From: Carallia brachiata
Lineage: Eukaryota; Streptophyta; Magnoliopsida; Malpighiales; Rhizophoraceae
Length of the DNA: 64,000 nucleotides
Direction of reading: 5' to 3'
NCBI GenBank assembly: GCA_021464245.1
Contig: JADCRB010000016.1
Coordinates: forward strand, 7,168,129-7,232,128
Shown one piece after another: positions 1-55,534 of this stretch. A program made the translations under genes and the position numbers. The number at the start of each line of letters is the position of its first letter. The first letter of the stretch is position 1. A model generated the notes under the pieces. The model was given only the letters and a program-made list of their open reading frames with translations, was not told the DNA's origin and made no database searches.

Positions 1-1
1 C

Positions 2-178
2 TGCCCCGAGTGGGCGCAATCGTGAGACAAGTTGGTAAATCTGAGATGCATTAGGCATAATACCTCCATTGTTGTGGAAGACTTCCTCCAAAATTTGTAA
101 TTGTGCCATGGTGGGTTGCCACCTTGTGCGGGGTGACCTTTCTTCTCCCTTGTCTTGAGGTTCTGCAACTGATTCCAT
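2..178 (-). CDS. WUSCHEL-related (WOX-like) homeodomain protein, N-terminal part, cut by window edge
   Basis: A 59-codon open frame starts with ATG at 178 and runs off the window. After a short acidic leader (MESVAEPQDKGEERS) residues 17 onward read as a WOX homeodomain: TRWQPTMAQLQILEEVFHNN, then PNASQIYQLVSRLRPLG. These match the TRWxPTxxQLxILEE start of helix 1 and the PxAxQIxxIxxxLxxxG of helix 2. The helix 1-2 loop has the length of the WUS type, which is one residue longer than in other WOX homeodomains as far as I recall. Helix 3 (the WFQN DNA-contact helix) would lie beyond position 1. A TATA box at 267-274 sits about 90 bases upstream. It lies on the sense strand downstream of the Tat integrase. 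It may be an ORF carried by the element or a host WOX gene next to it. The domain call is strong; the ownership is open. Confidence 0.75.
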   Translation of the reverse strand, partial: MESVAEPQDKGEERSPRTRWQPTMAQLQILEEVFHNNGGIMPNASQIYQLVSRLRPLGA

Positions 179-266
179 CTCTCTTGTGGCAGAGGAGCAA
201 AGTTCTTGGTATGTGGTGAAGATCGGTTGAGACTGATGCTGAGTTTCAGACTCAAACCCTCTGTCG

Positions 267-274
267 CTTTTATA
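267..274 (-). promoter_or_regulatory. TATA box of the WOX-like ORF
   Basis: On the minus strand this reads TATAAAAG, flanked by A-rich sequence. A start about 30 bases downstream would give a leader of roughly 60 bases before the ATG at 178. This suggests the ORF may have its own promoter rather than relying on the retrotransposon transcript. It is a motif match only. Confidence 0.5.
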
Positions 275-320
275 TTTTTGGGCCGTTCACAGTTTATACT
301 CATGCGGGCCAGGAGTTGGA

Positions 321-611
321 TTGGATTTTGAACTTGGGTTCTGGACGTGTCTGGAACTTGGAATTTTGGGTTTTGGTTTTTGGATTGATTGGGTCGAGTG
401 TTTGGGTTTAGACTTGGATTTTTGGATTTGGGTCGAGTGTTTGGGTTTGGATTTGGATTTTTGGATTTGGGTCGAGTGTTTGGGTTTAGACTTGGATTTT
501 GGATTTGGGTCGAGTGTTGGGTTTTGGATTTGGATTTGTGTTGGTTTGAGTTGGACTCTGAATTGGGCTCAAGTGTTTGGGTTTGGATTTTCGCTTGGTC
601 TTTCAGATCGG
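321..611. repeat. Minisatellite, period 38-39 bp
   Basis: The core GGGTCGAGTGTTTGGGTTT starts at 391, 430 and 469, and at 507 with one base missing, so the spacing is 39, 39 and 38 bases. More degenerate GGATTT/GGGTTT units continue on both sides (about 321-390 and 520-600). It lies between the pol end and the WOX-like ORF. Open frames across it are by-products of the repeat (Trp/Gly/Phe/Leu-rich) and not believable proteins. Confidence 0.85.
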
Positions 612-672
612 GACTTCGCAACTTTTTTTTTTTCTTTTTTGATTTTCTTTTTTTTTTATTTTTTTTTTTTTT

Positions 673-703
<31 letters not shown>

Positions 704-722
704 GATTTTTTCCTTTTTTTTT
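612..722. repeat. T-rich low-complexity tract (A-rich on element sense strand)
   Basis: About 110 bases of nearly pure T with occasional C, G or A. On the element's sense strand it is an A-rich tract immediately after the integrase C-terminus. A similar tract lies at the other end of gag-pol (7182-7332). Confidence 0.9.
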
Positions 723-732
723 TAAAACATAT

Positions 733-1770
733 TTACACATAATACTGTTTCAGAAATTTACCATTGATTGGGCCGATTCGGACGCCTTCTTGGTCTGACA
801 GCATGTAAGCGTTGTGAGTGTAGGCCTCCTGCACTAAGTATGGCCCGTCCCATTTGGAAGTAAGCTTGTCACCAGGCCGATGCTTCATGTTGATGGGCCG
901 TCTGCAAGAACAAGGTCTCCAACTTGAAAAGATCGAGGGCGGACCCTGCGGTTGAACGTGTTGGTGAGCCGGGCTTGGTAGCACTCAAGTTGCTGTTGTG
1001 CTTCGAGCCTCCTTTCATCGAGAGCTTCTAACTCATCCAGACGTAGGCGAGCATTCTCCTCCTGTGTGAGTCCTTCCAGAACAGCCATGCGCAGGATGGA
1101 ATCTGTGTTTCCAACGGCAGTATTGCTTCGACACCGTAGACAAGTGAGTATGGCGTCGCCTGTGTTGGAGTCCGGTAAGTTGTACGATACGCCCATAATG
1201 CCTCCGGAATTCTGTCATGCCAATCTCTTTTGGATTTAGAGACTACCTTCCGCAACAGGTTGCATAAGGTCTTGTTGAATGCTTCGGCCAAGCCATTTGC
1301 TGGGGCATTGTACATGGATGACTTGTACTGCTTGAACTTGAACTTCTCGCAGAGCTTGTCGATTAAGCTGTTGTAGAACTGCTTACCATTATCAGTGATG
1401 ATGAATCGAGGGACTCCATAGCGATAGATCAGCTGAGTCCGGATGAAATTGGCAACATGCTCCTTCTTTACCTCTCTAAGTGGAATGGCTTCAGCCCATT
1501 TTGAGAAGTAGTCGGTTGCTGCGAGGATGTACAGGTGACCCAGGGATGACTTTGGCAAGGGCCCCACTAAGTCGAGACCCCAAGCTTCAAAGGGCCAGGA
1601 TGAGACAGTTGGATGCAGTGGCTCCGGTGGTTGATGTATGTAATTGCATGAAATTGACAAGCTTGACAAGTTTTAGCAAACTCAATTGAATCACGTACCA
1701 TGGTTGGCCAGTAGTATCCCATCCTTCTGAGTTGGAAGTGCAACTTAGGCCCGATTGATGTCCGCCACAA
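733..1770 (-). pseudogene. Tat element integrase (frameshifted)
   Basis: The integrase inserts the element's cDNA into the host genome. Three parts are visible in shifting frames. First is the HHCC zinc-finger end (MGYYWPTMVRDSIEFAKTC then CQ.C, 1670-1770). Next is the DDE core (about 1090-1600), with first Asp in LDLVGPLPKSS, second Asp in IITDNGKQF and Glu in NGLAEAFNKTL. Last is a C-terminal segment with a GDLVLAD motif, then RPGDKLTSKWDGPYLVQEAY (733-960). The three acidic catalytic residues are all present. Frame changes near 1650, 1100 and 930 break the chain. There is no chromodomain, consistent with a non-chromovirus (Tat) element. Confidence 0.85.
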
Positions 1771-2033: not shown

Positions 2034-3017
2034 CTATCCATTTCTGGCATACGGCAACAACTGTAGCCTGGATTTCTGACTTTGCAAGAGAAGTGGCCAG
2101 GTTAGCCAACGCGTCTGCCTGAGTTTTTCTCGTCGAGGCACATGCTCCAAGGTGATGCTTTCAAATTCATCCATTAGCTGTCGAGCACGTTGATGGTAAG
2201 GCGCAAGGTCCTCTTTCTTCACGTCATACAATCCTGTAAGTTGGTTGATGACGAGCTGGGAATCTCCATGGACTTCTATAGTTGGAATCTTCATATCGAC
2301 AGCCATTTGAAGACCAATGATCAAAGCCTGGTATTCAGCAACATTATTTGAACATAACTCACCGAGAATGATAGCATATGGTAGTATTTGTCGTTGAGGA
2401 GTGACAAACACTATGCCGGCACCAGCACCATCACGCCTTGCTGCACCATCAAAGAACATCGTCCATGGTGGTAGTGTCTCAATGTAAAAGACCTCTTCAT
2501 CTGGAAGATCATCTGTGAACTCCCAATCGACGGAAGGGTGATCTGCAAGGAAGTCTGCTAGAGCTTGTCCTTTGACTGCTTTTTGAGGCACGTAGACAAT
2601 GTCGTAGCTTTGTAGGATTACTGCCCACTTGGCAAGTCGTCCTGACAAGATTGGTCTAGATAAGATATATTTGACAGGATCAGCTCTGGCAATGAGACGT
2701 ACCGTGTGAGCTTGCATGTAGTGCCTCAGCTTGTCAATGGCAAAGAACAGTGCTAGACATGTCTTTTCAATGGGCGAATAACTCAGCTCCGGACCGTTTA
2801 GTGTTCTGCTCAAGTACAGGGCAACTTCCTTTCCCTGCTCGTTTTCCTGTGCAAGCAAGGCTCCCAAAGATCTTTCCTGCGCTGCAATGTAGAGAATCAA
2901 CGACTTTCCTTGAATTGGAGCACCTAGGACCGGTGGATTGGAAAGGTACTTCTTTATGCTCTCAAAGGCTTTGCTGCAAGCTTCGTCCCACTCGAAGTTG
3001 ACATCCTTCTTCATCAA
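2034..3017 (-). pseudogene. Tat element tandem RNase H domains
   Basis: This 327-codon open stretch follows the reverse transcriptase and holds two RNase H modules. The first (about 2540-2960) is the usual gypsy RNase H region, with SYSPIEKTCLALFFAIDKLR and GRLAKWAVILQSYDI. The second (about 2080-2480) is an archaeal-type RNase H with FFDGAARRDGAGAGIVF, SNNVAEYQALIIGL and VHGDSQLVINQ, giving the D-E-D catalytic set. Having both is the known signature of the Tat lineage. The frame degenerates around 2100 and joins the reverse transcriptase through a frameshift near 3020-3044. Between this block and the integrase, 1800-2030 is degraded connecting sequence. Confidence 0.88.
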
Positions 3018-3043
3018 CCGATGGAAAGGTTGACATCTCCCAG

Positions 3044-3840
3044 CTAAATTGGAGATGAAACGGCGAATGTAGCCAGCTTTCCTTGTAGACTTCGCAGCTC
3101 GTGCAGGTTTTTAGGTTCAGGCATCTTTTGAATTGCCTCAACCTTTGACTGATCAACTTCGATTCCACGATGGCGCACCACGAACCCAAGAAACTTTCCT
3201 GATGTGACACCGAATGCGCACTTGAGAGGGTTCATTTTGAGCTGATGCCTCCGAAGTCTTTCGAACACTGTCTTGAGATCCTCGAGGTGGTCTTTGCGCT
3301 TCTTAGTCTTTACAACTAAGTCATCAACATAACATTCTACAATCTTGTGCAGCATGTCATCAAAAATTTTTTGCATAGCACGTTGATAAGTGGCGCCAGC
3401 ATTTTTAATCCAAACGGCATAACTTTGTAGCAGTATATACCTTTTGGGGTGCGGAATGCTGTCAACTCCTCGTCTTCTGGTGCCATTCTGATTTGGTTAT
3501 AGCCTGAAGAACCATCCATGAAGACAATGCTTCGTGACCCGTTGTTGCATCGACTGTGATCTCCGTTATGGGCAATGGAAAGTCATCTTTCGGGCAGGCC
3601 TTTAAGATCTCGAAAATCAACACATACCCTCAACTGTCCATTCTTCTTTCTTACCGGGACAATGTTGGCAATCCACGTTGGGTAGGTGACCTCTCGGATG
3701 AAGCCATTGATCAGCTTGTTCACCTCCTCCTCGATTTGTGGAATGAGTTCCGGGCGGAACCGTCGTTGTGGCTGCTTGACAGAACGAACACCCTTCTTTA
3801 CTGCTAGACGATGCACCGCAATTTTGGGTCAAGTCCAGGC
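3044..3840 (-). pseudogene. Tat element reverse transcriptase (frameshifted)
   Basis: Reverse transcriptase copies the element RNA into DNA in the virus-like particle. Visible blocks in order on the minus strand are: the N-terminal motif IEEEVNKLINGFIREVTYPT with RVCVDFRDL (about 3600-3750); DGSSGYNQIRMAPEDEEL and TPKGIYCYKVMPFGLK (about 3400-3510); and the active-site motif CYVDDLVVKT followed by HQLKMNPLKCAFGV (about 3200-3340). The YVDD active site is intact. At least three frame changes (near 3810, 3590 and 3390) interrupt it, so the copy is dead. Confidence 0.88.
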
Positions 3841-4480: not shown

Positions 4481-5170
4481 TCAGGTTGTGCAGCTCCTTT
4501 GTTTTGGGTTGGCTATGACCTTGCTCCTGTTTAAGATCAATACAATAAGAGAAAGGGGGTTGACCTTCTGAGCGTCGTGACTTCGGCACATAGCGTAGGA
4601 CTGGAGTGGAGCTTGAAGATGCAACATCCTTCGGACGAGTTCAGCAGGCTGTGGCAGCTTTTCATTTGTTGGAGCCTGGGTTGGGCATTGGCAGGTTCTT
4701 CGACAGCTTTTCCCTTTTTGTGGATGCCCCCAGTCCAAGTAGCTTTTGATGGAATGATCTCCGGATTGTCTGTGTCGGTAGAAGACTGCATCCGCCAAAT
4801 GTGATTCAGCATCATCGAACGGCTTTAAGTCAGCATTGACCTTTTGAACGCCACCATTGTAGTACTTGAAGCACTGATGCAGGCTTGAGAGCACAACTCC
4901 ATTTCCATGAATCCACGGTCGTCCTAGCAACATCTTATATGTGGTACGTGCATCAATCACGTGAAATAGAGTGCTAGAAGTGAGATTACCGATAGTTAGC
5001 TCCAAGCGAATCATCCCAATTGCTTTCTGTCCTCCTTGATTAAAGCCATGAATCATCAAGCGGCTGTCTGATAATTCATCAATGCCGATGCCGAGCTCCT
5101 TTATGGTGGATTTTGGGATAATATTGACTGCTGAGCCATCGTCGATCAGAATACGTCGACCTTCTGTTCT
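4481..5170 (-). pseudogene. Tat element aspartic protease region
   Basis: The retropepsin-like protease would cut the Gag-Pol polyprotein. On the minus strand the active-site segment reads ILIDDGSAVNIIPKS (about 5105-5160), with D-D-G-S in the position of the usual DTGS. It is followed by SRLMIHGFNQGG and the flap/C-terminal signature YKMLLGRPWIHGNGVVLSS (about 4890-4940), typical of plant gypsy proteases. A long linker with charged and Pro-rich sequence follows (3804-4589) before the reverse transcriptase. That linker ends in YRDVFAWSYKEMPGLDP, the classic lead-in to gypsy RT. The protein is out of frame in several places. Confidence 0.8.
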
Positions 5171-5559
5171 CTCACATAGCCTGATACATACAGCGGCCGA
5201 TTGTGGGGTTTGGACCCCAGCAGGAGATCCTCATCTGAAAATGAGATAGCAGAGTAACATCCGACGTGATTTTGGTCCGTGTTGCTCCGCTGAGTTAGAA
5301 TCATTGATGGCTGAGATTCAGCTGAGGTCTGAGAGTATTGCTGACTTGATTTTGCCACACTTCTGTTGATTGCAAAGCTATAAACAGCTGAGGGTTAGCG
5401 AGAAGGGTTTGGAGAGCTTCATATACCTTCTCCGTTGTCGACTTTTTGTTGTCGAGCGGCTCCTCCTTACGGTGTGTCACTCTTCTGATGGTTTTGAAGT
5501 GATGGTGGTCTGGTTTGCCGAGGTTATGCCTTCCTGGTCCAGAATGATTTTATTCTGGC

Positions 5560-7161
5560 TTTGAGCTTCATGATTAGCTCCTTCAGGACGAAACACTTTC
5601 GGTTGGATGACTTACTATCCGGTGATATTTGCAGAATCTCGGATCGCTGACTCGATCCTTTTCATTCGGCCGCTTGCACTCTGGGAGTTCGATCAGCTTC
5701 GCCTCCAAGAGTTGTTCAAGAATGTCGGGGACGTCTGAGTCGGGGAATGGATACTGCTTCTGCCAACTCTCGCAATGTCACCTTCCGCCTTTCCTGTTGT
5801 TTTGGCTGAGTTATTTGGGTCGGAGGATTTACCTTAGCTTTGGCGCCCACTTTTACTGGTGCGGCTTCAACAGTCATCACTTCTTTCCTTTTCCGGAGCT
5901 GTTGGGTTTCTTAATCTCCCTTCTGCCCCCTTGCTGGTCCAACTGGATGGGAACCGTGCCTCCGGAAGTCTGGATGCTTATCTCCATATCATGTGCGCGG
6001 GTCGCCAGTTCTTCGAAGTTCGGGGTTTGACACCCTGCAGGATGTATAACAGCTCCCAATGCATTCCCTGGATGCACATCTCCACGGCAGAAGTCTCCGT
6101 CAGGCGATCTTTGCAGTCCAAGCTGAGGGCACGCCATCTGTTGATGTATTCGACAACGGGCTCTCCTTTCTTTGTTTGGTGCTGGTAAGCTCCATCATAC
6201 TTACCGTCCTTCGAGTGCTGAAAAATCTGTTGAGGAACTCTCGTTGTAGCTGTTCCCAACTGTCGATCGATTCTGGTTCAAGATTTATGAACCAGGTGAA
6301 AGCGGTCTCCCTGAGTGAACGAACAAACTGCTTCACCAAGAGATCTCCATAAGTCCCTGCGTTGTTGCAGGTTTCAACGAAGTGGGCGATGTGCTGTTTG
6401 GGATCGCCTCGTCCGTCGAATTGTTGAAATTTGGGCGGCTGGTAGCCCAAGGGCATGTTGAGACTTTCGATCCGTCTGGTGTACGGTTTGACGTACATCT
6501 GTGATCCTTGGAAGGATGTAGCTTGTTGCAGTCGGATCGTATTGGCTATCATTTCCTGCAATTGTTGAACAGATAGCGAAGCTACAGAATTTGAGGGTGG
6601 CAGCTGTGTAGAACTACCTGGTCGCTTTTCTGCAGGGAAGACGTCGGCTGGTGTGGCTTCTGGAGTGAAACCGGGTGGATATGGTTGCTCCTCGCGGATT
6701 CGGGATCAACTTGGATCGGGGCTTTTCCTTTGAGAGCGCGATCTGTTGATCTTTTTCCTCCACGACTCTGATCAGCTGCAAAATTTTTCTCCAATTCTGA
6801 AATCTTTCCTCTGCTGGTTGTGTTGGTCATCATGACGGCAACAGATGAGGCTCCGGAAAGACTGGGGAGAGAAATCTTCTGATTCTTCTGTGTGATCGGA
6901 TTTTGTTGAGCAGGCTTCGTCGTGTTGCCCCCGACTTCGATCGGGGTGGATGATCGACTCCTCCATGCGGCAAGAGAGTCAGGGGAGAGATCCTGTTGTG
7001 CGAGCTGTGGACTCTCCATTTCGATATTTTGTCGGGTTTGGACGGCAAGAAATTGTGTCCGTCCCCGGGTTTCTGGACCTGCGTACCCAGGTAGGGTAGT
7101 TGATGCAGGCAATGGAGCCGTTGCCTTCTTGTGGTAGCAGTTGTACTCTTTTCGGTGCCAT
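5560..7161 (-). pseudogene. Tat element gag (capsid/nucleocapsid), frameshifted
   Basis: Gag forms the particle and packages RNA. A plausible start is ATG at 7161 (MAPKRVQLLPQEG). The variable N-terminal part (about 6580-7160) is Ser/Gln/Pro-rich and low in conservation. The Retrotrans_gag domain spans about 5980-6480, with PKFQQFDGRGDPKQHIAHFV, FVRSLRETAFTWFINL and SWEQLQREFLNRFF, then GEPVVEYINRWRALSLDCKD after a frame change near 6200. At about 5590-5640 a zinc-knuckle-like CKYHRIVSHPTE..KCFVLKELI is readable across a frameshift. All domains are recognisable but the reading frame is broken. Confidence 0.82.
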
Positions 7162-7376: not shown

Positions 7377-8032
7377 AAAATTTGTAAAGCGTAAATTTCG
7401 AGCTAAAACAATTAAACTCGAAAATACAAAAATAAATTACAAATAAAAATTGTAAAATAAAAGAAAATTTACGTGGGGTCGATCTCCGTAGATCCTCCGA
7501 TTAGTGTTCCTTTTTTGACTCCGTCAAGGGCTGCACGAGCTTGATCTTGACAGAAATAATTTCCACAGCTTTTTCTTGAACTGGGTAGACTGAAACTGGA
7601 TCTGATTTGGACGTTTTACTACGGTTAAGAACCGCAGAGACCTGATCTGAGCTATTGACTTAATTTCACCGAGGGTCGAAGGACTTGTTCTCGGATGAGT
7701 TGCCTGGATTTTGCTGAGGGCCGTATGAGGTTTAATCCCAGCCGGATTTGTAGTAATTTGATATTTTTAGATCTATATTCTCAAAAATTCAGATCTAGAG
7801 CGATCCGATAATATAAACCTAAAAATAATTTTAGAAATGGAAACAACAAATTTTTTGGGGCTTACCCCTAAAATATCTCTCAAAAAGGAGTAGGAGTATA
7901 CTGCAGAGTAAAGCACGTAAGAAATGAGAAATTTTCTTGAGAGGTTTTCAAAATTTTCTTTTTCTCCCAAATTCTCTGGATTTTCCTGTTTACAGATTTA
8001 CTGAATGTATTTTGAACTGAGGGGCAGGGGCC

Positions 8033-8040
8033 TATTTATA
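8033..8040 (-). promoter_or_regulatory. LTR promoter TATA box
   Basis: The minus strand reads TATAAATA within the LTR, downstream of the palindromic U3 and upstream of R/U5. This is the expected position for the element's RNA polymerase II promoter. Confidence 0.65.
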
Positions 8041-8044
8041 GGGT

Positions 8045-8215
8045 TCCTTTCCCATGTGAACATCACATGGGAAAGGAATCTTTTTTGGAAATAAATTTCT
8101 TTGGCCGGCGTTGCCAATTCAAAATTGGCAACGCCGGCCATTGAATTCAATGAATTCATTCAATGGCAATTGAATTCATTGAATTCAATGGCCATTGAAT
8201 TCATTGAATTCAATT
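8045..8215. repeat. Three stacked palindromes in the LTR U3
   Basis: A perfect 15-bp inverted repeat (8045-8059 with 8063-8077, 3-base loop) is followed by a perfect 17-bp inverted repeat (8103-8119 with 8123-8139, 3-base loop). Then comes a head-to-head palindrome with 24-bp arms meeting at GGCC (8168-8191 with 8192-8215, one mismatch), built from repeated TGAATTCA units. Such DNA can form hairpins or cruciforms. Confidence 0.9.
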
Positions 8216-8237
8216 ATTTTTTTTTTCTTTGTTTACA

Positions 8238-9561
8238 GTCAATAAAACAAAATAATATATTAATGTCCATTTATAACAATTTGTTTTATTACAAAATAAA
8301 ATATTTCTAAAATTAGATATAAAAATTAAAAAAATTATTCAAATAATTTAAAAAATGAATAGAAACCAAATTAATGAAATAATTTTTTCATTATTTTTTG
8401 CGTTAACATTGCAAATGAGAAGATTAAAAAAAAAACTTCATTTAAAGTACGTGAGAAAGCAAAAGAAACAGTAGTGGAACATAAGGAGGAAAAAAAAGAA
8501 AAAAAAAAGCAATATCTTTCAAACCTTAACGAAGGCAGGGGAAGAAAAAAAACAAACAAATGCAACAAATGCGTCGGGTAAGGCTCAGACAAGAGACAAA
8601 TGAAGGGGGGCAATGCTAACTTGCCGCTAGATTAGGCTAGTAAGTTGGTTCTTTTCTTTCTTTGATCTATATTAATTTAAAAAGTCAATACAAGGCACTT
8701 ATTCATTGGATCTATCTCTATTTGTGAGATGAGTATGATCGTACGATTCTACCAATTCCACAACTCATATCGCAATTTTGTAATGATTTTACTGAAAAGA
8801 AATTTTTCAAGTGATTTGAATCGTTGGCCTTGAGTGGGATCATAGGATTGCACGATCTTACGATCCATATCACGATTTTAACAGCCATGTTTTCACAACA
8901 AGGCTATCTCAATAATTCAAATTTGTGAGATTATGATGGAGTAACATATTTACAACACTAAAGTTTACCCTTCAAAATAAATATATGTATATAATAAATA
9001 AAAAATTATATACATTAAAAATATATGTTTATATGATATACAAAAACAAAATAGTGTATATATGTATTGAATATATATTTATTGTATTTATATATAAGAA
9101 AATATTAAACAATAACTTATTTTCTTAAATAAAAATTTAATTTCAAAAGTAAAATTACATTTTCTATATTTGGTTTAGTTTGAGTTTGAGTTTAGGTCAT
9201 TTTAGATTCGAGTTGATCGGATTAAGTTACATTTGGGTCACATTACATTTCATTCTAGTTTTAAGGGACGAGTTAGGATCTACCCATCATATTGAATCAG
9301 AATTCAACACCTAAAGTGTGTTCAAGTTTCAACATGTGTTAAATGTTTTTTTTTTTTTGGTCTAAATATTGTTACAGGATTCTTATGTTATACTTTTGAT
9401 TGAGTTTCAGAGACTCACTCCTCTAGGGAATGAAAGTTTCAAAAAAGCAACAATTTGATGCACTTTTTATTTCCAGCGAAAAACTTGCAAGGATATATCC
9501 ACCTGCAAAATGCAAGTCACGTGTGAAATGAAAGGTCCACGTTTGTTAAACCTAACACTAA
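8238..9561. other. AT-rich intergenic DNA
   Basis: No coding region recognised. It holds AT-rich sequence with repeated statements of GATTTGAATCG-like and TTACATTT-like words and no clear terminal repeats. The short open frames have no family resemblance. Confidence 0.6.
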
Positions 9562-29842: not shown

Positions 29843-29931
29843 GTTAACGAATCTTTTGGGATAGACACAGACAGTTGAGTTTTGGAACTAGGATATTGAT
29901 TGGGTTTAGGGTCTTGCAGTTGGATTTGGAT

Positions 29932-32211
29932 ATGGATTCTGGTTTTGCTGGATTTACTACTTCAATAGATGGTTCCAAGTTTGAGGAGGAGAACCCTTTA
30001 GCAGATTCCAAACTGTTCCAGGGTACTGCAAATGTGGTCAAACTCAGAGATCCTTCTTTGGATTCGAACTTCAACTTCGTGGACAGGCCACTTGTCTTGC
30101 CGGACCTCGATCCGGGTGGCTTTGGCCTGTCATCTGTCACGAGCACGGATGGAGATTCTCCATCTGATGACCTGGAGTACTCAGAAACGGTGCTTAATTA
30201 CATAAGCCAGATGCTTATGGAAGAGGATATGGAAGAGAAGCCCAGCTTGTTCCATGATCCGCTGGCTCTTCAAGCTGCTGAGAAATCACTTTATGATGCT
30301 CTTGGTCAGAAGTATCCCTCCTCACCCAATCAATCCTCTTCTTACGGTGACCAGTTTCTAGTTGATAGTCCGGATGATGGGTTTTCAAGTGGTTCCAGTG
30401 ACAGTAGCCTTACAAGTTCTAGTTCCAATAATAGCGCCGCGGTTTATCCTCAAGTAAATGGTGAATTTGGAGAACTCAAGCTATCCTTTTTGCAGACACC
30501 TCTTCCTACTAATTTCGTCTTCCAATCTCCTGGGAAGCCCAGTTCGCAAGCATCAGTTAAGTTGCAGAATGGATCAGAAAGTAATGGTAATGGTTTGGTG
30601 CGGCCCTCTGTGGGCGAGATTGTGGTTCCAAATTTGTTCAGTGAGAGTGAATTGGCATTGCAATTCAAGAAAGGTGTTGAGGAAGCTACCAAGTTCCTTC
30701 CTAAGAGTAATCAATTGGTTATTGATTTGGAAACAAAGGCATTCGTTCTGGAGTTGAAGGAAACTGCTTCAACAGCAGTAGTGGAGGCAAAGAAGGAAGT
30801 GAATGATTATTTTCCTGATTCATTGCTTGGAAAAAAGAATCACAAGCGAGAGGAGGAAGATTTTGTGGAAGAAAGAAGCAACAAGCAGTCAGCAGTTTGT
30901 GATGACGAGATTGAGCTGTCGGAGATGTTTGATAAGGTCTTAGTCTGTCCTGAAGAACCATGTCGGCCACCTGGGCTTCCCGAAAGTAAATTAAGCAACA
31001 CAATGCAGCAGACTGGGCAAAAAAATGGATCTAGTGGTGGCAATTCTCGGGCCAAGAAACAAGGAAGCAAGAAGGAAGTCGTAGATTTGAGGACTCTATT
31101 GATACTTTGTGCGCAAGCTGTTTCCACTGATGATCGTAGGACTGCAAATGAGCTATTGAAGCAGATCAGGCAGCACTCCTCACCTTTTGGTGATGGGTCT
31201 CAAAGGTTGGCTCACTGCTTTGCTAATGGTCTAGAAGCACGTTTGGCTGGCACAGGAACTCAGATCTATACTGCTCTGTCTGAGAAGAAAACGTCGGCTG
31301 CATGCATGTTGAAAGCTTACCAAGTATATCTTTCACACTGCCCATTTAAGAAGATTGCTTATGTGTTTGCAAATCATACCTTTTTGAGTATGGCTGAGAA
31401 AGCAACAACACTTCACATAATAGACTTTGGAATATTATATGGTTTCCAGTGGCCTGCCCTCATTTATCGTCTTTCAAAGATACCTGGTGGGCCTCCCAAG
31501 TTACGCATTACCGGGATAGAGCTTCCACAGAGTGGGTTCCGTCCAGCAAAGGGAGTTCAGGAGACTGGGTACCGGTTGGCAAAATACTGTGAGCGCCATA
31601 ATGTTCCATTTGAGTTCAATGCCATAGCACAGAAATGGGAAACAATCCGAGCTGATGACCTGAAGATTAATCCTGGCGAGTTTCTTGGAGTGAATTGCCT
31701 TTTCCGGTTTAAGAACTTGTTTGATGAGACAGTTGTGGTCGACAGTCCAAGAGATGTTGTTCTAAATCTCATCAGGAAGATAAATCCAGATGTATTTGTA
31801 CATGCTATTGTCAATGGATCTTATAGTGCTCCCTTTTTTGTCACAAGATTCCGGGAGGCACTCTTTCACTTCTCTGCATTGTTTGACATGTTGGACACGA
31901 ATGTGCAACGTGAAGATAAGATGAGGCTGAAGTTCGAGAAAGAGTTCTATGGTCGAGAGGCGATGAATGTCATTGCGTGCGAGGGAACAGAGAGAGTTGA
32001 AAGACCTGAGACATACAAGCAATGGCAGGTTCGAAACACGAGAGCTGGGCTGAAGCAGCTAACTTTGCACCCTTTGCTTATGGGTAAATTGAAGCAGAAA
32101 GTCAGTGGAAAGTACCACCCTGACTTTGTGGTGGATCAAGATGGCAACTGGATGTTACAAGGATGGAAAGGACGGATCGTTTATGCATCTTCTGCATGGA
32201 TTCCTGCATAG
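29932..32211 (+). CDS. GRAS transcription regulator, LISCL (SCL14/SCL33-like), copy 1
   Basis: Intronless 759-aa protein. Members of this subfamily are nuclear coactivators; Arabidopsis SCL14 works with TGA factors in stress and detoxification gene expression. The N-terminal half (1-380) is variable and acidic, with the LISCL signature VLNYISQMLMEEDMEEKPSL followed by DPLALQAAEKSLYDAL, and an SLSEMFDKVL-like segment before a basic KK..GSKK stretch. The GRAS domain is 384-759: VDLRTLLILCAQAVSTDDRR (leucine heptad I), LHIIDFGILYGFQWP at 494 (VHIID), a PFYRE/leucine heptad II region with RFREALFHFSALFD at about 639-652, and the SAW motif GWKGRIVYASSAWIPA at the end. The ATG at 29932 (MDSGFAGF) is chosen over one 57 bases upstream because it begins the conserved family start. 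Fully open frame. Confidence 0.92.
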   Translation: MDSGFAGFTTSIDGSKFEEENPLADSKLFQGTANVVKLRDPSLDSNFNFVDRPLVLPDLDPGGFGLSSVTSTDGDSPSDDLEYSETVLNYISQMLMEEDMEEKPSLFHDPLALQAAEKSLYDALGQKYPSSPNQSSSYGDQFLVDSPDDGFSSGSSDSSLTSSSSNNSAAVYPQVNGEFGELKLSFLQTPLPTNFVFQSPGKPSSQASVKLQNGSESNGNGLVRPSVGEIVVPNLFSESELALQFKKGVEEATKFLPKSNQLVIDLETKAFVLELKETASTAVVEAKKEVNDYFPDSLLGKKNHKREEEDFVEERSNKQSAVCDDEIELSEMFDKVLVCPEEPCRPPGLPESKLSNTMQQTGQKNGSSGGNSRAKKQGSKKEVVDLRTLLILCAQAVSTDDRRTANELLKQIRQHSSPFGDGSQRLAHCFANGLEARLAGTGTQIYTALSEKKTSAACMLKAYQVYLSHCPFKKIAYVFANHTFLSMAEKATTLHIIDFGILYGFQWPALIYRLSKIPGGPPKLRITGIELPQSGFRPAKGVQETGYRLAKYCERHNVPFEFNAIAQKWETIRADDLKINPGEFLGVNCLFRFKNLFDETVVVDSPRDVVLNLIRKINPDVFVHAIVNGSYSAPFFVTRFREALFHFSALFDMLDTNVQREDKMRLKFEKEFYGREAMNVIACEGTERVERPETYKQWQVRNTRAGLKQLTLHPLLMGKLKQKVSGKYHPDFVVDQDGNWMLQGWKGRIVYASSAWIPA

Positions 32212-38956: not shown

Positions 38957-39348
38957 GTACAAAGCTATAGTTCCATTCCTGAACTCCTTTTCAATCTTTG
39001 ATAAATTGGGAGTATATTTTCCAAAGTAAAAGTTTCTGTAGCCAGAGATAGTTTGGTTCTATCGTTGCCTTTAGCAATTTGCCTGCTTTTCTTGGTTTGT
39101 GATGGCCTATCTATGCTGTTTGACTAATTTCTCTTTGATGGTCATGTTCAAATTTATTTACTTTTTGCATCTTCTTCTTCCGGCTTCTTGTTGTTCTCCA
39201 TGAGCTTGGCTAGTTTCTTACAGCAAGGCCTAGATTTGCTTTGCTGTTTACACTAACTTTCATGGTTTCATGCTTAATGTTCTTAGCTCATGAAACCGTG
39301 ATAAATTTAGCTGGGAAAAAACTGAGAGGTTTATTTGACTTTTCTCAG
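38957..39348 (+). other. Predicted 5'-UTR intron of GRAS copy 2
   Basis: The donor CCCCAG|GTACAAAG and the acceptor TTTTCTCAG ending at 39348 leave a 21-base leader before the ATG at 39370. The arrangement matches GRAS copy 1. If the intron is used, the longer open frame starting at 39241 is not translated. Confidence 0.55.
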
Positions 39349-39369
39349 ATTTGTGGAAAATTTTCGGTC

Positions 39370-41727
39370 ATGGACACAAATTACACGGCATTCTCCGATT
39401 ACCCCTACATAGATGAACTTGCCAACTTCTCAAACTCGGATCAAAACCAAATTTTGGAAAAAGGGTCAAAATTTGATATCCCATCTCCAGGACTCAGCTT
39501 CATGAATGTTCCTTTTGACCCTCCTGATCCAGAGCCTGACATTTCTGGCCTGCTCTTAAGCTTGAGCTCAGAGGGAGAGTCATCAATCCCCTCTACAGGA
39601 TTGAGCCCACAAGATGCCTCCTCTGATCCTTCATCTTCAACCTGGAGTCCGGAGGGAGAAGCTTTCTTTTCCTCTCTTGACAGCGATTCCACAGATCCTG
39701 TTCTCGGCTACATAGGCCAGATGCTTCTGGAAGAGAATATGGAGGACAAGCCTTTTGTGTATTATGATCCCTTGGCTTTAAGTGCCACCGAGAAGTCTTT
39801 GTCTGAGGTGCTTGGTGAGCAACATCTTCCATCGACAAATTCTCCTTTGAATTTCATCAACCAGGAGAGCTCCAACAGTACTCTTTGGGGACGAGACGTT
39901 GATCACAGCAAAGAAAATATTGCCTGCACCAACAACAGCACTGGCACTGGAGATTTGGTTGATAATTCTCACTGGGTTGGTGCTGTTGGAGGGGAGTTCA
40001 ATACATCTTCATTGCAAACCTCTCTTCCTGATGACTACAACTTCGGGTTGAATTTGCAACCTGTTGTGCCTGTTATCAGTGATGAACTAACTGCTTCTTC
40101 TGCCAGTGAGTTGGTGCACAATATGTTTAGCAGCACAGAATCTTTGCTGCAATTTAAGAGAGGCTTAGAGGAGGCTAGCAAGTTCCTTCCTAGTGCTAAC
40201 AAATTGGTTATTGACTTGCATAGCAATGTGCTTCCTGAGAGACAGACGAGGGAAGCTCTGACATTGGATGCGAAAGATGAGAAATCTAATAGCGGAAGCT
40301 CACCAAATGGATCATCAAGGGGTAAAAGGAATCATGAACAAGAAGATTCTAATCTTGAAGAAGGAAGGAGTAACAAGCAGGCAGCAGTGCATGTAGACGA
40401 GAGTGAATTATCAGAGGTGTTTGATAAGGTATTGCTGTGGAATGGGGAAGCAGGCAGACCATCTTACTGTGCCTATGATGCAGATAAGTATGGAGAATTC
40501 GAGGCCTTGCAACTTGTTCAAGAGTCAAATATGCCGAATGGTGGGAAAACTGGAGCTAAGAGACGGGGCAAGAAGACGGAAACAGTGGATTTGAGGACCC
40601 TTTTGATTCTGTGTGCACAAGCTGTTTCTGCTAATGACTTGAGGACTGCAAATGAGCTACTGAAGCAGATCAGGGAGCATTCTTCTCCTACTGGCGATGG
40701 TTCTCAACGAATGGCCCATTACTTTGCTAATGGTCTTGAGGCACGATTGGCAGGGAGTAGCATCGGGGTCCAAAACTTCTTCAGTTCTCTTACTACTAGA
40801 AGGGTAATGGCTGCTGATATATTGAAAGCTTACAAAACTCTTCTTAATTCTATGCCATTTAAGAGGTTCTCAATTTTCTTCGAGGGCAAAATGATTTTGC
40901 TTGCAGCTGGACAAGCAGCGACTCTTCATATTGTTGATTTTGGTGTTCTACATGGTTACCATTGGCCACTTCTTATCCAGCAACTTGCTTTTAGGCCTGG
41001 TGGCCCTCCCAAACTAAGGATTACGGGGATTGAGCTGCCCCAACGCGGTTTCCGGCCAACAGAAAGAATAGAGGAGACAGGACATCGCTTGGCGAAATAT
41101 TGTGAGCGGTTTAATGTTCCATTTGAATACAATCCTATTGCTGCACAAAACTGGGAAAGCATCCCAATTCAGGACCTGAAAATTAGAAGTGATGAAGTGC
41201 TTGCGGTTAATTGCCTAACTCGCTTCAAGAACCTACATGATGAGACAGATGAAGTGAACTGCCCAAGGGATGCTGTCCTCAGCTTGATCAGGAAGATGAA
41301 TCCTAATATTTTTGTCCTTAATGTTCTAAATGGTTCCTACAATGCACCCTTCTTTGTCACAAGGTTCCGGGAGGCACTTTTCCACTTCTCCTCGATGTTT
41401 GACATCTTTGATTCTACCTTACCTCGCGATGATCATGAAAGGTTAATACTTGAGAGGGAGATACATGGGCGGGAAGTGGCGAATGTTGTTGCATGTGAGG
41501 GACTGGAAAGGGTTGAGAGGCCTGAGACCTACAAGCAGTGGCATGTTAGGATTATGAGGGCAGGATTCAAGTCACGACCGTTAGAGCAGAGGCTCATCAA
41601 CAGGTTTAGAGCTACGTTAAAGGTGAACTACCACAAAGATTTTGTAATCGATGCAGACAGTGATTGGATGCTGCAGGGATGGAAAGGTCGAATCCTCAGT
41701 GCTTCCTCCTGTTGGCTTCCTGCATAG
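39370..41727 (+). CDS. GRAS transcription regulator, LISCL (SCL-like), copy 2
   Basis: Intronless 785-aa protein and tandem paralogue of the gene at 29932. The N-terminal part is Ser/Asp-rich, with the subfamily signature VLGYIGQMLLEENMEDKPFV and YYDPLALSATEKSLSEVLGE, an LLQFKRGLEEASKFLPSANK segment, and a basic RGKRNHEQED stretch that could help nuclear import. The GRAS domain spans about 406-785: VDLRTLLILCAQAVSANDLR, LHIVDFGVLHGYHWPLLIQQ at 519 (VHIID), RITGIELPQRGFRP, RFREALFHFSSMFDIFD (PFYRE region) and the terminal SAW motif GWKGRILSASSCWLPA. The start at 39370 (MDTNYTAFSDYPYIDEL) is the conserved LISCL start; 43 upstream codons are probably intron/leader. The frame is intact. Confidence 0.92.
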   Translation: MDTNYTAFSDYPYIDELANFSNSDQNQILEKGSKFDIPSPGLSFMNVPFDPPDPEPDISGLLLSLSSEGESSIPSTGLSPQDASSDPSSSTWSPEGEAFFSSLDSDSTDPVLGYIGQMLLEENMEDKPFVYYDPLALSATEKSLSEVLGEQHLPSTNSPLNFINQESSNSTLWGRDVDHSKENIACTNNSTGTGDLVDNSHWVGAVGGEFNTSSLQTSLPDDYNFGLNLQPVVPVISDELTASSASELVHNMFSSTESLLQFKRGLEEASKFLPSANKLVIDLHSNVLPERQTREALTLDAKDEKSNSGSSPNGSSRGKRNHEQEDSNLEEGRSNKQAAVHVDESELSEVFDKVLLWNGEAGRPSYCAYDADKYGEFEALQLVQESNMPNGGKTGAKRRGKKTETVDLRTLLILCAQAVSANDLRTANELLKQIREHSSPTGDGSQRMAHYFANGLEARLAGSSIGVQNFFSSLTTRRVMAADILKAYKTLLNSMPFKRFSIFFEGKMILLAAGQAATLHIVDFGVLHGYHWPLLIQQLAFRPGGPPKLRITGIELPQRGFRPTERIEETGHRLAKYCERFNVPFEYNPIAAQNWESIPIQDLKIRSDEVLAVNCLTRFKNLHDETDEVNCPRDAVLSLIRKMNPNIFVLNVLNGSYNAPFFVTRFREALFHFSSMFDIFDSTLPRDDHERLILEREIHGREVANVVACEGLERVERPETYKQWHVRIMRAGFKSRPLEQRLINRFRATLKVNYHKDFVIDADSDWMLQGWKGRILSASSCWLPA

Positions 41728-53613: not shown

Positions 53614-55534
53614 AGATGAAGTTGGAAAGTTCCTGCCTAGTGCTGACCAACTAGTTGTTGATTTGGCAAGCAATGTGACCGGGACGCGAAGTGGAGACGC
53701 GAAAACTGATAATACTGGAAGCTTGATAACTGGGAATAAAAGAAATCATGAACGAAAAGATTATGATTTTGAGGAAAAGAGGAGGAACAAGGAGTTGGCA
53801 GTAGTTCACGTGGAAGAGAGTGACATGTCAGAGATGTTTGATCAAGCATTGCTATGGAATGGCGAAGCGGGTGATCCTGATGAGAATGATGGAGGATGCA
53901 AGATGGTGCAACTAGCTCAGCAATCAAAGAGGCAAAACGTCAGGAAAACTGGTGCTAAAAGACATGACAAGAAGAAGGAGACAGTGGATTTGACAACCCT
54001 TTTGATTCAATGTGCATGAGCTGTCTCTTACAATAACTTGAGGACTGCTGATGAGCTGCTGAAGCTGATCAAGGCACACACTTCCCCTTTTGGCAATGGT
54101 ACTCAGCGGATGGCTCATTGTTTCGCAAATGGTCTCGAGGCACGCTTGGCTGGAACTCAAACTGGAGTCAACAATTTCTTCCCTTCTCTTAAATCCACGA
54201 GGATAACAGCTACTGATCTATCGAAAACTTACGTAACTCTTATTAAATCGTGCCCATTTAAGAGGTTCTCAATTTTCTTCGCAAATGAAATGATTTTGCG
54301 TGCAGCTGGACAAGCAGCAACTTTACATATCGTGGATTTTGGAGTCCAGTATGGTTATCAGTGGCCAGCTCTGATTCAGAAACTCTCCTGTAGGTCAGGT
54401 GGGCCTCCCAAGCTGAGGATTATAGGGATTGACCTTCCCCAATGCGGTTTTCGGCCAGTGGAAAGAATTGAGGAGGCAGGACGTTTCCTGGCAAAGTATT
54501 GTGAACGATTTAATGTTCCATTTCAGTACAATCCTATTGCTGCACAAAGCTGGGAAAATATACCGATTCAGGACCTGAAAATCCGAAGCGACGAAGTGCT
54601 TACAGTAAATTGCCTAATTCGCTTCAAAAACTTGCATGATGAGACAGATGAAGTGAACTGTCCAAGGGATGCTGTCCTCAACTTGATCAAGAAAATGAAT
54701 CCTAACATTTTTGTTCATTGTATCGTGAATGGATCTTACAATTCACCCTTCTTCCTCGCACGATTCCGGGAGGCACTTTTCCACTTCTCCTCAGTTTTCG
54801 ACATCTTTGACTCTACCTTACATCATGATGATCAGGAAAGGTTGATGCTCGAGAGAGAGAGATTATGGGGCTGGAAATCATGAACGTTATTGCATGCGAG
54901 GGACAACAAAGGGTTGAGAGGCCTGAGACATACAAGCAGTGGCAGGTTAGGACCATTAGGGCAGGGTTCAAATCATTGACATTGGACCAGAAGCTCCTGA
55001 AGAAGTTTAAAGCAATGCTGAAGGCAAACTACCATGATGATTTTATGATTGACGAGGACAGAGACTGGATGCTGCAGGGGTGGAAGGGTAAAATACTCTA
55101 TGCTTCCTCCTGTTGGGTGCCTGCTGCATAGAAGGTCAGAAACCCTGTCAAGGCATTATTTTTTGGCCTGTCTTAGTCAAGAAGTTGGTGACTTTCTTGC
55201 ACTTTGGCTTTCAAGGGCAGAAAGAAGGAAATTTGATAGAGTGAACAATGACTTTTTAACACATTTTCTGTCCAGGGAAATGCTGTGTTGATGGGTTCAG
55301 AAGTTTTTGGCTTTGCCCATTTTGTTGCTGAAGCAAGCAGAACACCAGTCACTGTGTCACCAATCATTAGTTTTTGGGAGCGCGTAGGTAGCCACAGGCT
55401 GCCTTGAAATGGGGAGCCACAGGCCCTACTAATCTCTCTCTCTACTGTTTTATCGTCAGACTGAGTATCAATCGCAATTTCAATTGACTATTGAATCCTC
55501 AACTTCCTGTTGCTGGCTTCATTTACTGTTAGAG

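What the first reader, a model, noticed from the sequence alone, without database searches (positions are those of the whole stretch)
1..300. WUSCHEL-like homeodomain ORF on the sense strand downstream of a Tat retrotransposon pol
Seen: a minus-strand ORF from 178 with TRWQPTMAQLQILEEVFHNN and PNASQIYQLVSRLRPLG, plus a TATA box at 267-274, placed after the integrase and a minisatellite and before where the 3' LTR should be. Known: WOX homeodomains share TRWxPTxxQLxILEE and PxAxQI; Tat elements often carry extra ORFs of unknown origin. Inference: a developmental transcription-factor DNA-binding domain may have been captured by, and be spread with, the retrotransposon. I do not know a description of exactly this arrangement. 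The alternative is a host WOX gene beside the insertion.
Basis: partly seen in the sequence, partly recalled or inferred. Interest (0 to 1): 0.88.

Follow-up and report, generated by a model that had tools for sequence, protein, structure and literature searches.

The report
Retrotransposon carrying a captured WUSCHEL gene
A plant jumping element of the Tat group carries, inside its own boundaries and in hundreds of copies, an intron-free gene derived from WUSCHEL, the master regulator of plant stem cells, so a mobile element may be making a stem-cell switch of its own.

Summary
The minus-strand ORF at 178-1 begins an intronless WUSCHEL-type gene. The left neighbour in the same genome (L009) adds the rest of the homeodomain, a WUS-box (TLPLFP) and a 3' LTR 95% identical to the window's 5' LTR; TTGAC flanks both LTRs, so the gene lies inside one Tat insertion. 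Two host WUSCHEL genes are separate loci. A homeodomain 24-mer occurs at 700 places in the genome, an integrase 24-mer at 774; 59 of 100 listed exact integrase places have an exact homeodomain place 1.04-1.32 kb downstream. Many other copies run 203-209 aa and end in an EAR-like tail; the window's copy stops before it. The TATA/leader is the best conserved of four noncoding stretches compared. Purifying selection on the ORF is weak (omega about 0.66; integrase 0.11), and a homeodomain tree leaves the exact WOX parent open. WUS-site arrays in the LTR belong to a subfamily, so autoregulation is not shown. A 2023 meeting report mentions LTR-flanked WOX amplification in two Vigna species; the host here is not Vigna. 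Mechanism open but testable.

The parts
1..178 (-). 5' part of the WUSCHEL-type ORF (ATG at 178; residues 1-59); it goes on beyond the window, the whole being L009:9107-8577 (176 aa in this copy; 203-209 aa in many other copies)
   Evidence: PDB 6ry3 E=2.9e-18
2..130 (-). N-terminal part of the homeodomain (RTRWQPT...LRPLGA)
   Evidence: completed by NVFYWFQNRRSR in L009
179..313 (-). putative internal promoter and 5' leader; TATAAAAG at 267-274
   Evidence: 96.1% mean pairwise identity over 34 copies against 88.4% just upstream; exact TATAAAAG within 160 bp upstream of the ATG position in 30 of 34 copies
364..537 (-). minisatellite between pol and the ORF
   Evidence: TRF
623..723 (-). A-rich tract (T-rich on +) after the pol stop
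733..1672 (-). integrase region and end of pol
   Evidence: Pfam rve 43.6 bits on the ORF at 1028-1672; frame to 733
2034..3110 (-). RNase H followed by archaeal-type RNase H (RVT_3): order RH-aRH-IN as in angiosperm Tat elements
   Evidence: Pfam RT_RNaseH 1.3e-22 and RVT_3 1.9e-20
3044..3496 (-). reverse transcriptase (part)
   Evidence: Pfam RVT_1 9.3e-16
4481..5230 (-). aspartic-protease-like region (below the Pfam cut-off)
   Evidence: PF13975 E=0.0029, 18.6 bits against 28.2
6100..6705 (-). gag
   Evidence: Retrotrans_gag 32.5 bits
7359..7376 (-). possible primer-binding site (begins TGG, 6 nt after the LTR end)
   Evidence: sequence reading only; tRNA partner not tested
7383..8237 (-). 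5' LTR; the 3' LTR lies outside the window at about L009:6248-7056
   Evidence: 95.2% over 787 positions; K2P 0.056 over 802 sites
8138..8216 (-). TGAATTCA/TGAATGAA array in this copy's U3; candidate WUS sites, subfamily-specific
   Evidence: 17 TGAA in the first 260 nt of the LTR against 6.2 in shuffles; absent from most other copies
8238..8242 (-). target-site duplication TTGAC (partner just outside the 3' LTR in L009)

Best explanation
An ancestor of this Tat family copied a spliced WUSCHEL-type mRNA into the space between integrase and 3' LTR. The sense ORF became a standing gene of the family, with a TATA promoter and leader of its own. It encodes a short WUSCHEL-like protein: a homeodomain with the WUS DNA-reading residues, a WUS-box, and in intact copies an EAR-like tail. 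Inferred mode of action: the protein is made from its own promoter in dividing cells, binds WUS-type sites (TGAA, TAAT), recruits TOPLESS-type co-repressors through WUS-box and EAR (recalled function of these motifs), and so shifts host gene expression towards an undifferentiated meristem state, in which new insertions can reach the germ line. Shown here: position inside the element, copy number, domain content, conserved promoter-like leader, weak purifying selection. Inferred: capture through mRNA, expression, DNA binding, co-repressor recruitment, benefit to the element. Confidence by step: captured and integral 0.97; made as a working protein by at least some copies 0.6; host-directed regulator 0.4.
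For: Inside LTRs and TSD. 700 places of a homeodomain 24-mer and 774 of an integrase 24-mer (up to 2 mismatches), reversed-pattern controls 0; the two linked at a fixed distance. WUS-type: 65 residues align to Arabidopsis WUS without a gap while STENOFOLIA needs one; homeodomain, TLPLFP and EAR-like strings stand in one frame in 11 of 34 copies. Residues for which PMC7203112 reports base reading (R38, Q89, N90, R94), N-arm anchoring (W39) and dimer contacts (I66, F85) are kept; F101 is not. No intron: RW-to-WUS-box is 146 residues (438 nt) in L009, against 1323 and 1216 nt from the alignment start in the two host WUS genes, while the 120 listed WUS-type proteins need 142-217 residues. Leader 96.1% identical against 88.4%, 86.3% and 86.5% in three other noncoding stretches. 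Homeodomain against host WUS: silent sites saturated (pS 0.81-0.87), replacement sites 0.32-0.37. Shared variants N65:S39, omega about 0.66, p=0.039.
Against: Selection on the ORF is weak beside integrase (omega 0.11) and RNase H (0.14), and shared and singleton variants in the ORF hardly differ (0.66 and 0.78), unlike integrase (0.11 and 0.38) and RNase H (0.14 and 0.71); outside the homeodomain it is not distinguishable from neutral (0.74, p=0.21), and the homeodomain alone is borderline (0.46, p=0.052). 23 of 34 copies lack at least one of the three strings in the main frame, the window copy among them; two stop within 7 residues. Most of the 34 loci come from a list ranked by homeodomain score, which flatters homeodomain and leader conservation. 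No expression, binding or transposition data.
Confidence: 0.6

Rival explanations
1. Passenger: the WUSCHEL-type gene was captured once and has been copied along since, with at most a past function; the coding motifs are decaying.
For: Near-neutral variants outside the homeodomain and in the C-terminal part (omega 0.74 and 0.79), and little difference between shared and singleton variants; only 11 of 34 copies keep all three strings in one frame; identity falls from 95.3% in the homeodomain to 90.0% in the C-terminal part.
Against: Silent sites against host WUS are saturated while the frame, the DNA-contact residues, WUS-box and EAR-like tail persist in part of the copies; the leader is the most conserved of four noncoding stretches compared; no stop-making variant was shared by 3 or more distinct copies in the count of single-base codon changes.
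Confidence: 0.27
2. Autoregulator: the element's WUS protein binds TGAA arrays in its own LTR and switches its own transcription, as retroviral transactivators do.
For: The window copy's U3 has 17 TGAA in 260 nt (shuffle mean 6.2, 0 of 2000 as high) and 7 TGAATGAA/TGAATTCA words (0 of 2000); the whole LTR has 22 against 15.0 (50 of 2000 as high). WUS-HD prefers TGAA repeats (PMC7203112, abstract and passages).
Against: TGAATTCA occurs in 7 of 33 downstream LTR segments scored (L009 itself among them, with 1), three or more only in L025, L040 and L048, and TGAATGAA in 0 of 33. Single copies are mostly within the shuffle range. U3 sequences printed for 7 copies differ widely. Most pairs in the array are inverted, a layout that binds about tenfold more weakly. 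Shuffles do not allow for local duplication.
Confidence: 0.15
3. Ordinary host WOX gene that happens to lie beside a truncated Tat element.
For: From the window alone it could not be excluded.
Against: Matching 3' LTR and TSD beyond the ORF; 700 genomic places, linked to integrase; host WUS genes are separate loci with 48.5-48.8% identity and no integrase or LTR match.
Confidence: 0.01
4. Decoy: the short protein pairs with host WUS or competes for its sites without its full activity, as a dominant-negative regulator.
For: Dimer residues I66 and F85 kept; the stretch between RW and WUS-box is short (146 residues; median of 120 listed WUS-type proteins 193, range 142-217); the window copy and others lack the EAR-like tail.
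Against: F101 lost; intact copies keep both repression motifs, which a pure decoy would not need.
Confidence: 0.12

Closest known systems
LTR-flanked WOX amplification in Vigna marina and V. riukiuensis (K. Naito, meeting report PMC10714607; section 7 read)
   Same: WOX genes multiplied, mostly surrounded by identical LTRs with TSDs; more than 1000 copies in V. riukiuensis
   Different: A few sentences; element lineage, domains, orientation and promoter are not stated there, and searches listed no primary paper. The host here is not Vigna: exon 1 of its WUSa gene is 69% identical to V. umbellata and V. unguiculata WUS.
Arabidopsis WUSCHEL (PDB 6ry3; PMC7203112, abstract and passages)
   Same: Gapless homeodomain match, base-reading residues, WUS-box and EAR-like tail in this order
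   Different: Multi-copy, no introns, short linker, F101 lost, arginine at the S36 position; 48.5-48.8% identical to the host's own WUS over the homeodomain
Retand/Tat elements with antisense TRP28 ORFs (PMC11963269; abstract, outline and passages seen)
   Same: Tat-group pol, long pol-3'LTR region, tandem repeats, extra ORF with likely DNA binding
   Different: There the ORFs are antisense; here the ORF is sense and a WUSCHEL homologue. The words homeo and WUS do not occur in that main text.
Phalaenopsis Gypsy elements with an AlkB-type m6A demethylase (PMC9289625; abstract, section 12 and passages seen)
   Same: Host-derived extra domain kept by a Gypsy lineage
   Different: RNA demethylase, not a transcription factor. 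Its screen of 121 angiosperm genomes describes a B3 domain among 15 frequent extra domains; homeo and WUS do not occur in the main text. Supplements not read.
Elements with LONELY GUY-like ORFs (Steinbauerova et al. 2011: recalled, not held; mentioned in PMC9289625 section 12)
   Same: Developmental host gene taken into a Gypsy element
   Different: Cytokinin enzyme; Athila lineage as I recall it

Membership tests
Tat lineage of Ty3/gypsy LTR retrotransposons | LTR pair, TSD, and gag-PR-RT-RH-IN order on one strand | tested here: met
   (protease match below the Pfam cut-off)
Tat lineage of Ty3/gypsy LTR retrotransposons | additional archaeal-type RNase H; between RH and INT in Ogre and Retand (PMC6317226, passages) | tested here: met
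   RVT_3 at residues 220-327 after RT_RNaseH at 69-169, upstream of the integrase ORF
Retand subclade | antisense TRP28 ORF downstream of pol (97% of clusters in PMC11963269) | tested here: inconclusive
   No Pfam match in two long sense ORFs; antisense ORFs were listed but not scanned; no RT tree built
WUSCHEL (modern-clade WOX) | WOX homeodomain with W39 anchor and R38/Q89/N90/R94 | tested here: met
WUSCHEL (modern-clade WOX) | WUS-length homeodomain loop (one residue longer than in the five other host WOX genes aligned) | tested here: met
   gapless to 6ry3, one gap to 6wig; host sequences
WUSCHEL (modern-clade WOX) | WUS-box TLxLFP | tested here: met
   TLPLFP in the window element; exact in the main frame of 13 of 34 copies, in some frame of 20 of 34
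WUSCHEL (modern-clade WOX) | C-terminal EAR-like LxLxL | tested here: met
   main frame of 16 of 34 copies, not of the window copy
WUSCHEL (modern-clade WOX) | falls inside the WUS clade on a tree | tested here: inconclusive
   very long branch; best tree outside WUS/modern rows (81/76); p-AU 0.36 for WUS+TE, 0.37 for WOX13-like+TE
host WOX gene | single locus outside LTRs, multi-exon | tested here: not met
Vigna WOX-bearing LTR elements | common descent with the Vigna elements | not testable with these tools
   no Vigna genome or element sequence at hand

The most novel reading that the evidence does not exclude
A selfish stem-cell switch: the retrotransposon makes its own WUSCHEL to hold or create meristem-like cells as a niche for germ-line transposition, and some subfamilies have evolved LTRs with WUS-site arrays that answer to it; similar captures in Vigna would make this recurrent.
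Probability: 0.22. Interest if true: 0.93.

Novelty: new variant of a known kind. Interest (0 to 1): 0.74.

Why it matters
Plants set aside no germ line early in life; heritable insertions must happen in the cell lineages of the shoot meristem, whose fate WUSCHEL controls (established knowledge). A retrotransposon with a WUSCHEL-type gene, with homeodomain, WUS-box and EAR-like tail, in hundreds of copies, makes the question whether plant mobile elements manipulate stem-cell identity directly testable, with the host's own WUSCHEL as control. It also warns that WOX 'family expansions' in annotated genomes may be transposon genes.

Tried and rejected
Protein searches with the partial ORF found nothing. 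The completed ORF found 339 proteins, of which the best 120 were listed, at up to 51% identity; all 120 hold a homeodomain RW.PT and a TLxLFP string; the other 219 were not seen. Scans of viral contigs and of bacterial and archaeal contigs gave no relative. Family-wide LTR autoregulation was tested and not supported. Overlap of truncated hit lists used hand-picked subsets (50 aRH places, 30 integrase places) and is not used as a rate; one search used all 100 listed integrase places and the 79 of 100 listed homeodomain places on the same contigs. Whether other Tat families of this genome lack the ORF could not be read: 150 of 3755 aRH candidates were scored, with several score classes, but no letters were left. 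The 41 of 100 integrase places without an exact homeodomain place may have a mismatched or an absent ORF. Pattern searches for the leader and the EAR region did not complete. No structure prediction was run. L010 (183 bases) and L011 (part of L050) were left out of the 34. An earlier count said that every fetched copy shows the full order; that was too strong, and (31 of 34) replaces it.

Full report
What is there. The minus-strand ORF at window 178-1 reads MESVAEPQDKGEERSPRTRWQPTMAQLQILEEVFHNNGGIMPNASQIYQLVSRLRPLGA. The window lies in G000 C58:7168129-7232128, a plant genome of 337.5 Mb in 164 contigs (plant by its genes). Fetching the left neighbour (L009) completes the ORF to 176 aa, with NVFYWFQNRRSR and ETLPLFPEYSG, and shows a 3' LTR 95.2% identical to the window's 5' LTR over 787 aligned positions. 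The LTR pair differs at 43 of 802 sites (K2P 0.056; about 2-4 million years at two recalled plant rates), and TTGAC stands immediately outside both LTRs. The ORF is therefore internal to one insertion. The element is Tat: RNase H, archaeal-type RNase H and integrase follow in this order (criterion from passages of PMC6317226).

It is a family trait. Of the loci fetched element loci hold the ORF sequence (L010, 183 bases, and L011, part of L050, were left out). 31 of 34 show integrase upstream and LTR downstream in the same sense; L015 and L020 were fetched with only 1452 bases upstream, and L047 shows no LTR downstream in the same sense. The genome holds 700 places of a homeodomain 24-mer and 774 of an integrase 24-mer (up to 2 mismatches; 0 for reversed controls). 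Of the 100 listed exact integrase places, 59 have an exact homeodomain place 1043-1324 bp downstream on the same strand; of the 79 homeodomain places listed on the same contigs, 60 have an exact integrase place upstream; chance gives about 0.2%. The first list was anchored on integrase, not on the ORF. The other 41 were not resolved.

It is a WUSCHEL-type protein. The completed ORF aligns without gaps to Arabidopsis WUSCHEL (6ry3, E=2.9e-18) and with one gap to STENOFOLIA (6wig, 6.7e-16). The 120 listed homologues of 339 all carry RW.PT and a TLxLFP string, 114 an LxLxL-like string after it. Read through the gapless alignment, the residues for which PMC7203112 (abstract and passages) reports base reading or anchoring, R38, W39, Q89, N90 and R94, and dimer residues I66 and F85, are kept; F101 is not. 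Position 36 is arginine; the paper reports that the S36R variant still shifts TGAA repeats like wild type and binds TAAT mainly as a monomer. Many copies run to 203-209 aa, several ending in ELDLELHLGPR. Of 34 copies, 32 have WFQNRR, 13 TLPLFP and 16 the EAR-like string in the main frame, 11 all three. Two copies stop within 7 residues. The window copy has a stop before the tail; copies with the tail exist.

Origin. The host's two WUSCHEL genes (L018, L019) are 48.5% and 48.8% identical to the ORF over the homeodomain, with no integrase or LTR match, and their WUS-boxes lie 1323 and 1216 nt after the alignment start. WUS-type proteins need at most 217 residues between these points, so introns are implied there, while the element has 438 nt and none. 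Capture of a spliced mRNA is the natural reading (inference). Silent sites between element and host homeodomains are saturated (pS 0.81-0.87) while replacement sites stand at 0.32-0.37: the capture is old or the element evolves fast, and the homeodomain was constrained for much of that time. WUS-box, tail and loop length argue for WUS.

Is it in use? The 135 bp before the ATG are 96.1% identical across copies, against 88.4% just upstream and 86.3% and 86.5% downstream of the ORF; TATAAAAG stands in 30 of 34 leaders. Shared variants show purifying selection, but weakly: ORF N65:S39 (omega about 0.66, p=0.039), homeodomain 14:12 (0.46, p=0.052), rest 51:27 (0.74, p=0.21), against integrase 9:32 (0.11) and RNase H 8:23 (0.14); singletons give 0.78, 0.38 and 0.71 for ORF, integrase and RNase H. 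Most loci were chosen from a homeodomain-ranked list, which biases homeodomain figures upward. A working protein made by a minority of copies fits; so does a slowly decaying passenger.

Autoregulation. The window copy's U3 holds a dense TGAATTCA/TGAATGAA array, and WUS prefers TGAA repeats. The array is far above shuffles, but belongs to a subfamily: of 33 LTR segments scored, 7 have any TGAATTCA, 3 have three or more, none TGAATGAA. I do not claim it for the family.

Prior knowledge. In the listings I saw no title or abstract that describes a Tat element with a WUSCHEL ORF; the listings are capped and the library holds open-licence papers only. A word hit led to PMC10714607 (section 7): in Vigna marina and V. 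riukiuensis amplified WOX genes are mostly surrounded by identical LTRs with TSDs. The host here is not Vigna: exon 1 of its WUSa is 69% identical to V. umbellata and V. unguiculata WUS; the best of 120 listed proteins are Turnera for WUSb (79%) and Spatholobus for WUSa (74%), and the homeodomain tree sets both beside Podostemaceae WUS. A rosid, perhaps of Malpighiales, is my inference. Extra ORFs in Tat are common (PMC7264820, part 1 of 3 read; PMC11963269, abstract and passages), and captured host domains in Gypsy elements are known (PMC9289625).

Verdict. A real and well-supported captured WUSCHEL-type gene in a high-copy Tat family; mechanism open but testable.

Noticed in passing
window 29848-32208, 39214-41724, 54020-54880 (+): Three GRAS-domain ORFs in a row (Pfam 383, 380 and 272 bits); a Ty1/copia element (RVT_2) lies at about 48.9-52.8 kb on the minus strand before the third.
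   Followed up: partly
window 8238-8399 and L009 5928-6078: Direct repeat (88%) on both sides of the Tat insertion, starting right outside the 5' LTR and about 170 bp beyond the 3' LTR.
   Followed up: no
L039, L043: L039 holds two WOX+integrase units in a row; L043 carries a second, diverged WOX piece: recombined or nested elements.
   Followed up: no
3' LTRs of fetched copies: U3 differs widely between copies while the rest of the LTR stays alignable; several U3s hold different hairpin-like palindromes.
   Followed up: partly
L018 and L019: Two host WUSCHEL paralogues (homeodomain dS 0.18), both with a WUS-box downstream.
   Followed up: partly
G000: Further aRH (RVT_3) score classes, with open frames up to 1292 aa without a stop, exist in this genome; whether any of them carries a WOX ORF is unknown.
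   Followed up: no
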